64,000 bases of DNA from a virus, in the IMG/VR virus record IMGVR_UViG_3300020455_000892, positions 18,032-82,031 of that record; one strand, 5' to 3'. The translations under genes and the position numbers were made by a program. Shown piece by piece: positions 31,095 through 34,936 of the stretch; position 1 is the stretch's first letter, and each line of letters begins with the position of its first letter. The notes under the pieces were generated by a model. The model was not told the DNA's origin. It searched no databases and saw only the letters and a list, made by a program, of their open reading frames with translations.

Positions 31095-32972
31095 TTAATC
31101 CGTAGGATTAATATCAGTGTTTTGGTTTGGTGTAGTTTTAAATGCGTTTGCTAGCTTCTCTATTGATGACTGTGCAATCGCAACTGTCGAAGATCCCATG
31201 TGTTCTACAATTTTGTTATAATCTAAATCTGGTTTACCGTCTCCATCAGCATCTTGACCTGTTAGAAAGTTTGGGTCATTGCCGTACTGAGCTCGAAGGA
31301 ATGCGTCACCTCCAGCCAGCAAAGCTCTACCTCGTTGAGGCGTCTGCATTAGATTTGCTAAATCCTCAGGTATAACACCTGCCGCATTTCCAAATAAACC
31401 TGCTAAGAACATCGCTTCAAGTCCATCTACATCACCATTAAATGCATTTAAGAAAGGTTGCACAGTTACCATACCGATTGAAGTACCAAATGCTTCAAAC
31501 AACCCTTTTGTAAATTCGCTTGACATCATTTCAGTTGATCTATCAATAAAGCCTTTCATACTAGTTACTAAGTCAGCATCTGATCCACCACCTAGTTTCA
31601 TTATAGCACTAAGAGCAAGATTTGCCGCTTCAGCATCTCTTTTGTTAAGTCCAAGTGTAAAAGATCTCATAATTTCTAATTCTTTTTGTCTTTCAGTTAT
31701 GAATTGTTTTTCAACTTCGTTACGTTCTTTTGCAAGATCAATTCCTGTTTCATTGATATTAACTGCCATTTGCATTAGTTTCATAGCATCTTCGTTACCA
31801 CCAAATGCTTGAACTTGAAACAGTTTAGTATCAGCATTTTGTTTAAAATTTTGTAATAATTGTGCTATAGCAACATTTGTATCAGTACCACTGTCTCCTG
31901 ATCGAATTCTAGCAATGCCTTCTGTTATAATAGCCATAAGATTTCCGGTTGTATCTAACTGTGCCATTCTACCACCAGCAGTTGCCATTTCACTACCTTC
32001 TACAGCAACACCTTGAATAATAGCATTCATTATTTCTTTTCCAGCTGGTCCCAAGTTGTCTGTTAAATTGCCAGTTACATCTTTAATTGCTTGAATTTGA
32101 TCTTTTGTCATACCTTGCATAGCAACTTGTAGTCTTACATCTTCTTGTGCCGCCATTTGAGCTCGTATTCTTTCACGAGTATTTTGACCAGTGACCCTAG
32201 CCATTTTTTCTTGTTCTCTATAATTGGCAACCATAGCATCAGTAAGATCATTTTGTACATAAAGTCTAAGCTGTTCAGCATCCATACTTTTTCTTCGTAT
32301 GTCAATTTCTTCAGCTAAAAACTGTGCTTGTTCATCTGCCGCCAGTCCGAAGTTTCCAAACTGTTCTGAACTTTTTTGTAGATTTTCTAAAATACCTATA
32401 AAATTCTGACTTCCTTCTTCAACACTGCCTCCAAGTTCTCTCATAGCACCTGTGTTTTGTGCAATAATATTTCCAAACATATCAAGTTGTAAACCTGTTT
32501 TAGCAAGTCTTCTCTGAGTAAGCATTACATCTTCGCCAAATGTAACACCAACATCTCCTGCAAAAGCAAATGTACTGCCAAGCTCTTTAGCTAGTCCAGA
32601 TACCATACCAAATGCAGTAGCCATTGTGCCTAAGCCAAGTGCTTTCATAAAACTTGTAACCATACCAGGTTTAGCTACACTTTGCATCACACCCATAGAA
32701 CTTGCTTTGCCAACTTCTTTAGCAAACTTAGTATTTTGTACTCTGCTTTTTGTTTCGTTCCAAACTTTTTGATAACCTTTAAGATCATCAACAGCAGATT
32801 TAATACTCATTTCACCTGCACTTGTGCCTTTGTTACTTGTTTGTAAACCTGTTAGATTTGTGGCTAAATCGGATAAAACCGCTTTGATATCTGACTGTGT
32901 TGACTCCATTGCAAAGTCTGGAACGTCAACAGTCATTGGTCTTCCGCCCATATTAATTTGGATAACTGCCAT
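31095..32972 (-). CDS. Probable tail tape-measure protein
   Basis: A 625-residue protein, largely helical, with a Gly/Ala/Met-rich hydrophobic stretch near residues 105-145 (SFMKALGLGTMATAFGMVSG) and long charged helices (RRKSMDAEQLRLYVQNDLTD, KERNEVEKQFITERQKELEI). This is typical of tape measures. T4 gp29 is 590 residues and sets a tail of about 100 nm; at about 1.5 angstrom per helical residue this protein predicts about 94 nm. The divergent neighbour is a gp26-like tail-assembly gene with a frameshift, an association seen with tape measures. Near the C-terminus DADGDGKPDLDY resembles a calcium-binding D-x-D-x-D loop. A TATAAATA late box lies 51 bases upstream. It could instead be another inner tail or virion protein. 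Confidence 0.6.
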   Translation of the reverse strand: MAVIQINMGGRPMTVDVPDFAMESTQSDIKAVLSDLATNLTGLQTSNKGTSAGEMSIKSAVDDLKGYQKVWNETKSRVQNTKFAKEVGKASSMGVMQSVAKPGMVTSFMKALGLGTMATAFGMVSGLAKELGSTFAFAGDVGVTFGEDVMLTQRRLAKTGLQLDMFGNIIAQNTGAMRELGGSVEEGSQNFIGILENLQKSSEQFGNFGLAADEQAQFLAEEIDIRRKSMDAEQLRLYVQNDLTDAMVANYREQEKMARVTGQNTRERIRAQMAAQEDVRLQVAMQGMTKDQIQAIKDVTGNLTDNLGPAGKEIMNAIIQGVAVEGSEMATAGGRMAQLDTTGNLMAIITEGIARIRSGDSGTDTNVAIAQLLQNFKQNADTKLFQVQAFGGNEDAMKLMQMAVNINETGIDLAKERNEVEKQFITERQKELEIMRSFTLGLNKRDAEAANLALSAIMKLGGGSDADLVTSMKGFIDRSTEMMSSEFTKGLFEAFGTSIGMVTVQPFLNAFNGDVDGLEAMFLAGLFGNAAGVIPEDLANLMQTPQRGRALLAGGDAFLRAQYGNDPNFLTGQDADGDGKPDLDYNKIVEHMGSSTVAIAQSSIEKLANAFKTTPNQNTDINPTD

Positions 32973-32991
32973 TAACTACTCACTTAACTAT

Positions 32992-32999
32992 GATAAATA
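32992..32999 (+). promoter_or_regulatory. Late-type promoter box for gp26
   Basis: GATAAATA on the plus strand, one mismatch to TATAAATA, 43 bases before the chosen gp26 ATG. It shares a 62-base divergent region with the oppositely oriented late box at 33016-33023. Confidence 0.5.
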
Positions 33000-33015: not shown

Positions 33016-33023
33016 TATTTATA
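33016..33023 (-). promoter_or_regulatory. Late promoter box for the tape-measure gene
   Basis: A perfect TATAAATA on the minus strand, in the divergent gap between the probable tape-measure gene and gp26, 51 bases before the former's ATG. Confidence 0.7.
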
Positions 33024-33034
33024 GGCAAAAACTA

Positions 33035-33898
33035 ATGGAAAATCCACTACAGAATTATTATCGACATAAAGATATCTATGTTAGACTTCCAACTGGAGGT
33101 AAATGGATGAGAGAACAACCAAATCTTACCGCTGATGGTGAAATTGGTGTTAGAGCTATGACTGTAAGAGATGAACTTTTGCTTAACATACCAGATGCAT
33201 TATACAATGGGCAAGCCATTTACGAGCTTATAGAAAGCATTTGTCCTGACATTGGTGATGCTAGCGATATGAGTTTGCCTGATGTAGATGTAATTATGCT
33301 AGCCAGCAGGGCTACCAGTTACGAAAAAACTTTTCCTGTTGAGGCAACATGTTCACATTGTGAAACTGCTCAAATGTTTGAAGTAGATTTACAAAAAGTT
33401 TTAGGTAATGTGAAAAGTGTATGGGAGCAAACAGAATTAGAAGTTGATGGTCTAGTTGTAGAAATGAGACCAAACACTGTATCTGCCATACATGCAAGCA
33501 ATATCAAAGTAAGTGAGACCAGCAGAGTGCTATCTTCAATGAAAGAGACTGAAACAGTAGATGAGCAATTAAAAGTACAGTACAGCGAAAACATTCAGCA
33601 GATTGCGGCGGCAAATGTAGTTTTACTAGCAGATTCTATTGTTAAAGTTACAATGCCAGACGGAAAGACAGTCGATGAACCACAACACATTATTGATTGG
33701 TTAACAAATTCAAATAGAAAAGTAAATGACATACTCACCAAACAACGCTTGAGAATGAATCTAAATGGAATAGATAAAACTTTTAAGTTTACTTGTGCTC
33801 AAGAAGATTGTGCAAAAACATTTAGTGCAGATATAGAATTTAACCCAAGTTTTTTTTTCACCAGCAACTCCGACTTCAAAAGAACTCTGAACAAGTAA
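33035..33898 (+). CDS. gp26: Baseplate hub / tail assembly protein, gp26-like
   Basis: A 287-residue protein beginning MENPLQNYYRHKDIYVRLPT; the LPTGGKWM segment matches the T4 gp26 (T4_baseplate) family. Two CxxC-type pairs occur: CSHC (residues about 109-112) and CAQEDC near residue 254, suggesting a metal-binding knuckle. Upstream in-frame ATG (32990) would add 15 residues without family similarity and would overlap the late promoter, so the ATG at 33035 was chosen. Near the end the reading frame crosses a run of nine T (33850-33858); the -1 frame from this run is open for 84 codons and has no start. A longer 359-residue product by -1 frameshift is therefore likely. gp26 acts in hub/tail assembly; in many tailed phages a frameshifted pair next to the tape measure are tail-assembly chaperones. 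Confidence 0.82.
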   Translation: MENPLQNYYRHKDIYVRLPTGGKWMREQPNLTADGEIGVRAMTVRDELLLNIPDALYNGQAIYELIESICPDIGDASDMSLPDVDVIMLASRATSYEKTFPVEATCSHCETAQMFEVDLQKVLGNVKSVWEQTELEVDGLVVEMRPNTVSAIHASNIKVSETSRVLSSMKETETVDEQLKVQYSENIQQIAAANVVLLADSIVKVTMPDGKTVDEPQHIIDWLTNSNRKVNDILTKQRLRMNLNGIDKTFKFTCAQEDCAKTFSADIEFNPSFFFTSNSDFKRTLNK

Positions 33899-34113
33899 AC
33901 AAACTTATTTCATACCACGAAAACAATAGTCAACGCATAAGAGAAAGTCTATTAGAAATAGTTCTATATACTGAAGGTGCATTTAATTACACAGACCTTG
34001 AACAATATCCTTTGAGATTAATACAAGATATCAACAAAGCAATCAAGAACAAGAATGACAAGATGTCTGAAGCTATGGATAAAGCAAAAGGTACTAATCG
34101 TAGAAGATTTTAA
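33844..34113 (+). CDS. -1 frame extension of gp26 (frameshift product)
   Basis: The -1 frame opens after a TAA at 33841-33843, crosses the T9 run and stays open to the TAA at 34111-34113. It reads HQQLRLQKNSEQVNKLISYH and continues through LLEIVLYTEGAFNYTDLEQY and PLRLIQDINKAIKNK to a basic end (KGTNRRRF). The first in-frame ATG is only about 16 codons from the stop, and no plausible GTG or TTG start with a ribosome site is seen, so it can hardly be expressed on its own. The sequence is coding-like and ends the plus-strand unit. Joined to gp26 by a -1 slip at the T run it gives a 359-residue protein. It might be the functional counterpart of T4 gp51, which is a guess. Confidence 0.75.
   Translation, partial: PKFFFHQQLRLQKNSEQVNKLISYHENNSQRIRESLLEIVLYTEGAFNYTDLEQYPLRLIQDINKAIKNKNDKMSEAMDKAKGTNRRRF
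33850..33858 (+). other. Slippery site for -1 frameshift
   Basis: Nine consecutive T, read in the gp26 frame as AGT TTT TTT TTC, provide the T-TTT-TTC type heptamer of classical -1 sites. The frame-0 stop follows 38 bases after the run. Slippage here joins gp26 to the start-less -1 frame. Confidence 0.7.
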
Positions 34114-34142
34114 ACATTCTTTCGAAGAGCTAAAGCTCATCG

Positions 34143-34177
34143 TCATACTCATTTCATTTCGTATGATAATTTTTTTA
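34143..34177 (+). terminator. Possible terminator after gp26
   Basis: A 6-bp perfect stem (TCATAC / GTATGA) with a 12-base loop is followed by TAA and eight T on the plus strand, 30 bases after the frameshift stop. The loop is long and the stem AT-rich, so strength is doubtful. Confidence 0.4.
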
Positions 34178-34244
34178 AACATTTTTTTATATGATACGTT
34201 ATTACCTTGTTTTCAGTCGCACTTAGCTTGTTACAGCCAAGTGC

Positions 34245-34507
34245 AAAAAAAAAACGAAACGGTCATTACCCCTCTCCAGCTCGCATCGTTATAGTATAAC
34301 CTATTGCTAGGCAGAGGCGGTTTTGCTATACCCCTTTACATACTGCTTAAAACGCAGAAACACTCTAAGCCATAACGACGACTTTTGAGTTATCCGTGGG
34401 TTACAATGGCACAGTAGAGCCCACTCTTTTGGTTCGTTTCCCTCAGGCAAGTTCCGACGGCCCGCATTGCTACGAACAATCTCAATGCTTTTAACAAAGA
34501 GGGTATG
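34245..34507 (-). ncRNA. Candidate structured RNA in a non-coding gap
   Basis: The gap 34114-34507 has no credible coding frame. From 34255 to 34507 its G+C rises to about 47% (hand count over 34261-34500) against roughly 35% around it. Read on the minus strand, it holds GCATTG/CAATGC (6 bp), a possible loop pairing GTTCGT/ACGAAC that would make a pseudoknot, CTCTTT/AAAGAG enclosing these, GTGGG/CCCAC, ATAAC/GTTAT, CTGC/GCAG, and CCTA-GCAA-TAGG with a GNRA tetraloop. The segment ends in ten T on the minus strand (34245-34254). It lies immediately downstream of the GIY-YIG gene, so it would be the 3' part of that transcript. No known RNA family was recognised. Function is unknown. Confidence 0.45.
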
Positions 34508-34936
34508 TTACGACTGTTGTCTGTTAAGTGATTCTATAAGTGCCTTGGAACTGCCAACTCTTACGTTTATAATGCCGTTATAGTATTCATCAGTTTTAAG
34601 AACTTCACGGTCAAACTGTTCTTTGGCTTCTAAATAGCTTAGTTCGCCTCTGCTGGTGCAGTAGTACAGTATTTCTCTTGTAAAGTTTTCAGGGCCTAAT
34701 TGTTCAACATCTTCATTTAAATGGTCACTGCTTCCCCAATAAGTTCGCCAGTCACTTTCTTTAGTTGAACGTCTTTTGTTTTTCTTGCCTTTGAGAGGTT
34801 TTTTAGTTACTTTAAATTTTGCCAGTTTTTTGCCAATGTACTTTTTGCCGTTTGTGAGGTTGGTAATAAGATATACAAATCCTATGTATTCCTCACTGAT
34901 CTCTTCTACTATTTTGCCTTGATAAGTCCATTGCAT
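34508..34936 (-). CDS. GIY-YIG endonuclease-like protein
   Basis: A 142-residue GIY-YIG domain protein. The motif pair is GFVYLIT (residues 19-25) and KYIGKK (32-37), followed by a basic stretch (KPLKGKKNKRRS), the conserved Arg in SDWRTYWGSS (Arg64) and the catalytic Glu in YLEAKEQFD (Glu103). The Gly-Phe-Val-Tyr form replaces canonical GIY. Members cut DNA as homing, restriction or repair-type nucleases; no separate DNA-binding domain is seen, and the family is common in T4-like phages. A TTGACA-18-TATAAT promoter lies just upstream. The adjacent downstream non-coding block is a candidate structured RNA. Homing activity is possible but not shown. Confidence 0.8.
   Translation of the reverse strand: MQWTYQGKIVEEISEEYIGFVYLITNLTNGKKYIGKKLAKFKVTKKPLKGKKNKRRSTKESDWRTYWGSSDHLNEDVEQLGPENFTREILYYCTSRGELSYLEAKEQFDREVLKTDEYYNGIINVRVGSSKALIESLNRQQS

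What the first reader, a model, noticed from the sequence alone, without database searches (positions are those of the whole stretch)
33844..34113. Start-less reading frame fused to gp26 by a probable -1 frameshift
Seen: gp26 crosses nine T at 33850-33858 in the frame AGT TTT TTT TTC, and frame 0 stops at 33898. The -1 frame opens after a stop at 33841-33843, crosses the same run and stays open 84 codons to 34113, ending in KGTNRRRF. It has no usable start codon. Known: many tailed phages make two tail-assembly chaperones next to the tape measure by -1 frameshifting. The neighbour here is a probable tape measure, though divergent. Inference: the 359-residue product is a T4-lineage version of this device, making gp26 a chaperone pair.
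Basis: partly seen in the sequence, partly recalled or inferred. Interest (0 to 1): 0.85.

Follow-up and report, generated by a model that had tools for sequence, protein, structure and literature searches.

The report
Frameshifted tail-assembly chaperone pair in T4-like phage
This marine T4-like phage gene makes a short and a longer version of a tail-building helper protein by slipping back one base on a run of nine T's; the trick is well conserved and already reported for T4-like phages, so this is a solid new example, not a new kind of thing.

Summary
Frame 0 of gp26 reads AGT TTT TTT TTC and stops at 33896-33898. The -1 frame opens after TAA 33841-33843, runs 84 codons past the slip, and stops at 34111-34113. 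It has no ATG/GTG/TTG before codon 51. All 82 loci surveyed (78 metagenomic viral contigs, three jumbo phages and the window; 62 distinct extensions) keep a slippery heptamer at this point: T_TTT_TTC in 59, A_AAT_TTT in 3. In each, the -1 frame stays open 53-81 codons past the gp26 stop. The extension evolves under purifying selection in the -1 frame (dN/dS 0.05-0.35); the other frames contain stops. Seven of eight further cultured phages share the layout, including RaK2-like and cyanophage members. gp26 belongs to the T4 gp26 family (PF12322). T4 gp51 is a gp26 paralogue with an added C-terminal domain, and the cyanophage 'gp51' is the -1 extension. Best reading: gp26 is TAC-N and the 359-residue product is TAC-NC, made by programmed -1 frameshifting. 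This device was described for T4-like phages by Vladimirov et al. 2022, so I call it a new member of a known kind. Untested: frameshift efficiency, ribosomal versus transcriptional slippage at T9, and binding to the tape measure.

The parts
32992..32999 (+). T4-type late-promoter-like motif GATAAATA upstream of gp26
   Evidence: at most 1 mismatch to TATAAATA within 100 nt upstream in 52 of 59 distinct loci versus 38 of 354 in-gene control windows
33016..33023 (-). Late-promoter-like motif TATAAATA on the - strand, facing the tape-measure candidate
   Evidence: TATTTATA on the + strand; visible at the same place in the upstream sequences of close relatives
33035..33898 (+). gp26 (TAC-N), 287 aa, short product; PF12322 T4_baseplate / phrog_150
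   Evidence: Pfam E 4.1e-14, PHROG E 5.1e-20; start set by alignment of relatives; AF2 pLDDT 84 with only residues 276-287 (the frame-0 tail after the slip) below 50
33850..33859 (+). Slippery site TTTTTTTTTC, containing T_TTT_TTT and T_TTT_TTC in frame 0
   Evidence: TTT TTC in 59 of 62 distinct loci against about 17% expected from Phe codon usage
33896..33898 (+). Frame-0 stop of gp26, 12 codons after the slip site
33859..34113 (+). -1 frame extension (TAC-C), 84 codons plus stop; the fusion is 359 aa
   Evidence: open in all loci, dN/dS 0.05-0.35, no usable start, AF2 helical pLDDT 88.7
31095..32972 (-). Candidate tape measure protein (625 aa), divergently transcribed
   Evidence: no Pfam/PHROG hit; between portal gp20 and gp26 as in 121Q, MIJ3 and RaK2; weak match to 121Q gp597, E 5e-5, not to the MIJ3 protein; RaK2 ORF088 is annotated as similar to a tape measure

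Best explanation
gp26 is a T4-lineage tail-assembly chaperone. Most ribosomes make the 287-residue short form (TAC-N). A minority reaching T_TTT_TTC (33853-33859), with tRNA-Phe in both P and A sites, slip back one base onto TTT TTT and read on in the -1 frame. They add 84 residues (TAC-C) to give a 359-residue TAC-NC. By analogy with lambda gpG/gpGT, the gp26 part would coat the tape measure (probably the divergent 625-aa gene) and the extension would recruit tail-tube protein. Shown: the architecture, its conservation, selection on the -1 frame and family membership of gp26. Inferred: that the shift occurs, its rate, and the binding roles.
For: Slip site, -1 frame and nearby frame-0 stop in 82 of 82 loci down to about 27% gp26 identity, plus 7 of 8 further cultured phages. 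Synonymous conservation of the slip codons: TTT TTC in 59/62, expected about 17%. Purifying selection in the -1 frame past the stop, dN/dS 0.05-0.35, with other frames holding 3-18 stops. No conserved internal start; the MIJ3 extension has none at all. The frame-0 tail varies from 1 to 30 residues and is predicted disordered in the window. T4 gp51 matches PF12322 over residues 1-201 (E 3.9e-52) and has a C-terminus of the same family (phrog_634) as cyanophage 'gp51', which is the -1 extension of S-SM1 gp26. Lambda mechanism reviewed in PMC5009743; T4-like TAC frameshifting cited in PMC12846349 and PMC10274946.
Against: No consistent downstream RNA structure (mean z -0.72 over 62 loci; window z +1.15 for 131 nt) and an SD-like upstream motif in only 3 of 62, so a stimulator beyond the homopolymer was not found. 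Similarity of the window extension to gp51 is modest. The partner's identity as tape measure rests on position and weak similarity. No proteomic data.
Confidence: 0.9

Rival explanations
1. Transcriptional slippage: RNA polymerase stutters on T9 and adds one U (or drops two), so normal translation of the edited mRNA gives the fusion.
For: Runs of about nine T or A are known substrates for polymerase slippage (background knowledge; Wagner et al. 1990 is cited in PMC3711429). All 28 distinct loci of the T9 group keep exactly nine T.
Against: 31 of 62 distinct homologous loci carry only T6 and 3 only T5, with the same -1 extension and a tandem-slippage heptamer; the shared feature is X_XXY_YYZ, a ribosomal signal. 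It could still add to ribosomal slippage in the T9 clade.
Confidence: 0.07
2. The extension is a separate gene with its own start, translationally coupled to gp26 (as annotated in 121Q gp595 and cyanophage gp51).
For: Some relatives have an ATG near the gp26 stop and were annotated as separate genes.
Against: Starts are not conserved in position; the window has none before codon 51 and MIJ3 none at all. Conservation of the -1 frame begins directly after the slip site, upstream of any start.
Confidence: 0.02
3. Sequencing or assembly error in T9 splits one normal gene.
For: Homopolymers are error-prone, and the window comes from a metagenomic virus record.
Against: Independent contigs from many samples keep T9, and T6 relatives including cultured complete genomes show the same split.
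Confidence: 0.005
4. The -1 frame is a chance open frame or a decayed remnant.
For: None found.
Against: 7/5000 shuffles, universal openness, dN/dS 0.05-0.35, confident helical model.
Confidence: 0.003

Closest known systems
T4-like phage tail assembly chaperones with frameshift (Vladimirov, Gautam and Davidson 2022, Virology 566:9-15; text not held, known here through citing papers and from memory)
   Same: gp26-family TAC-N with a TAC-C extension reached by a -1 slip on a poly-T site
   Different: This window is a marine phage fragment; I do not know whether this clade (T9 site, divergent from the tape measure) was included
Phage T4 gp26 / gp51
   Same: Same family (PF12322, phrog_150); gp51 is gp26-like plus a C-terminal domain, i.e. 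a TAC-NC
   Different: In T4 the two forms are separate genes; T4 gp26 has no slippery site or -1 extension
RaK2/121Q/MIJ3/Atu_ph07-type jumbo phages
   Same: Same T_TTT_TTC site and -1 extension; in 121Q, MIJ3 and RaK2 also the same order portal, tape-measure candidate (opposite strand), gp26, extension
   Different: T6 instead of T9; about 26-31% identity; extension unannotated or called a separate hypothetical gene
Lambda gpG/gpGT
   Same: Short chaperone plus -1 frameshifted long form (PMC5009743)
   Different: Different slippery sequence (G_GGA_AAG, from memory); no sequence similarity tested; in lambda the tape measure lies downstream on the same strand

Membership tests
T4 gp26 family (PF12322 T4_baseplate) | Profile match above the curated cut-off | tested here: met
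   53.2 bits against cut-off 24.5, E 4.1e-14; phrog_150 E 5.1e-20; BFVD fold matches to T4-like baseplate hub assembly proteins, E 5e-23
Frameshifted tail assembly chaperone (TAC-N/TAC-NC) | Slippery heptamer near the 3' end of TAC-N | tested here: met
   T_TTT_TTC conserved
Frameshifted tail assembly chaperone (TAC-N/TAC-NC) | Conserved overlapping C-terminal frame without its own start | tested here: met
Frameshifted tail assembly chaperone (TAC-N/TAC-NC) | TAC-C homologous to a known TAC-C | tested here: inconclusive
   hhalign to T4 gp51/cyanophage C-terminal domain E 1.4e-4 for one comparison, probability 52% over 34 columns; no significant PHROG/Pfam match
Frameshifted tail assembly chaperone (TAC-N/TAC-NC) | Adjacent to the tape measure gene | tested here: inconclusive
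   Neighbour at 31095-32972 lies as in jumbo phages but has no family match
Frameshifted tail assembly chaperone (TAC-N/TAC-NC) | Both products made; long form binds tape measure and tail tube; absent from the virion | not testable with these tools
   needs protein work

The most novel reading that the evidence does not exclude
In the T9 clade the same fused protein is made partly or wholly by RNA polymerase slippage, so one conserved phage locus switched between ribosomal (T6) and transcriptional (T9) recoding.
Probability: 0.1. Interest if true: 0.5.

Novelty: new member of a known kind. Interest (0 to 1): 0.3.

Why it matters
It fixes the annotation of a widely shared tail gene: 'gp26 baseplate hub subunit' is better read as a chaperone with two products. 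The small downstream genes called gp51 or hypothetical in cyanophages and jumbo phages are its frameshifted tail. It also shows the ancestral-looking frameshifted state from which T4's separate 26 and 51 genes could have arisen by duplication.

Tried and rejected
RNA stimulator: folding 60 nt downstream in 62 loci and 131 nt in the window gave no consistent structure. SD-like upstream stimulator: 3 of 62 only. Foldseek of gp26 against PDB: no significant match. Foldseek of the extension against BFVD: only E >= 0.04 to small unnamed phage proteins. Sequencing error, separate start and chance openness were rejected as described. Rfam and tRNA scans of the window: none.

Full report
What is there. 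The sequence confirms every coordinate: T9 at 33850-33858, frame 0 AGT TTT TTT TTC with a stop at 33896-33898, and a -1 frame opening after TAA 33841-33843 and closing at 34111-34113. Relatives start at the ATG equivalent to 33035. The ATG at 32990 lies at a T4-late-promoter-like GATAAATA that is common upstream of gp26 (52 of 59 loci with at most one mismatch, against 38 of 354 control windows). The short product is then 287 residues and the fusion 275 + 84 = 359.

Is it more than chance. Five IMG/VR contigs (57-92% identical) keep T9 and the extension. A profile search gave 80 loci. In the 82 loci analysed, all have a slippery heptamer near the end of gp26 and a -1 frame running 53-81 codons past its stop, whereas the +1 frame never runs beyond 29. 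Of 62 distinct extensions, 59 have TTT TTC at the slip and 3 AAT TTT; the run is T9 in 28, T6 in 31 and T5 in 3. Phe codon usage elsewhere in these genes predicts TTT TTC about 17% of the time. Past the frame-0 stop the -1 frame shows dN/dS of 0.05-0.35 in 14 of 17 comparable pairs, the other three being saturated; the alternative frames contain stops and mostly show higher ratios. Start codons are not positionally conserved, are absent before codon 51 in the window, and are wholly absent in MIJ3. The frame-0 tail after the slip varies from 1 to 30 residues and is the only stretch of three or more residues with pLDDT below 50 in the gp26 model.

What family. gp26 matches PF12322 and phrog_150. 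Cultured relatives are jumbo phages of the RaK2/121Q/MIJ3/Atu_ph07 type, which also carry T_TTT_TTC and the -1 extension. Cyanophages S-SM1 and C48C1 have a -1 extension too; there it is annotated as gp51 / hub assembly catalyst. T4 gp51 matches PF12322 over residues 1-201 and phrog_634 over 147-246, and the S-SM1 'gp51' matches phrog_634 at profile positions 61-118. So T4 carries the short form (26) and the long form (51) as two genes, while the window's lineage makes both from one gene. T4 gp26 itself has no -1 extension. The direct profile match between the window-type extension and the gp51 C-terminus is modest: E 1.4e-4 for a single comparison, probability 52%, aligned at the expected place.

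Mechanism. P-site TTT and A-site TTC re-pair on TTT TTT; both codons are read by tRNA-Phe (established knowledge). No conserved RNA structure or SD-like element was found. Transcriptional slippage is possible at T9, but the T6 and T5 homologues, which keep a tandem-slip heptamer, favour ribosomal slippage as the shared mechanism. Function follows the lambda gpG/gpGT model (PMC5009743). T4 gp26 and gp51 are listed as hub assembly chaperones in PMC3004832.

Prior knowledge. PMC10274946 (PRFect) cites Vladimirov et al. 2022 for T4-like phages that encode short and fused forms as separate genes. PMC12846349 cites the same paper for poly-T -1 sites in TAC-N genes of T4-like phages and reports the same layout in Vandenendeviridae. 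The 2022 paper itself is not held; from memory, its abstract says frameshifting is conserved in several T4-like groups and that T4 uses genes 26 and 51. The present locus is therefore a new member of a known kind.

Surroundings. The window is part of an 82,031-base virus record with a T4-like portal and major capsid protein. The 625-aa divergent neighbour is the tape-measure candidate by position, by weak similarity to 121Q gp597 and by the RaK2 annotation. It showed no match to the MIJ3 equivalent and no family hit, so its identity remains probable rather than shown.

Noticed in passing
L093 (Bacillus phage SP-15), 3093-3416: The gp26 homologue in SP-15 has its C-terminal extension (with an ESMAIFER motif like other TAC-C) in the +1 rather than the -1 frame, suggesting a +1 or -2 shift, or a separate start.
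   Followed up: partly
32992-32999 (+) and 33016-33023 (-): Facing T4-late-promoter-like motifs between gp26 and the divergent tape-measure candidate; the gp26-side motif is conserved across relatives.
   Followed up: partly
34508-34936 (-): SegE-like GIY-YIG homing endonuclease (PF19835, E 3e-36) directly downstream of the extension.
   Followed up: no
34114-34507: About 390 bases without a family-matched gene, with an A10 run at 34245 and sequence that looks structured by eye; no Rfam or tRNA match.
   Followed up: partly
gp26, conserved Cys 106, 109, 254, 259 (numbering from 33035): Two conserved cysteine pairs (CxxC and CxxxxC) that could bind zinc, shared with jumbo-phage homologues.
   Followed up: no
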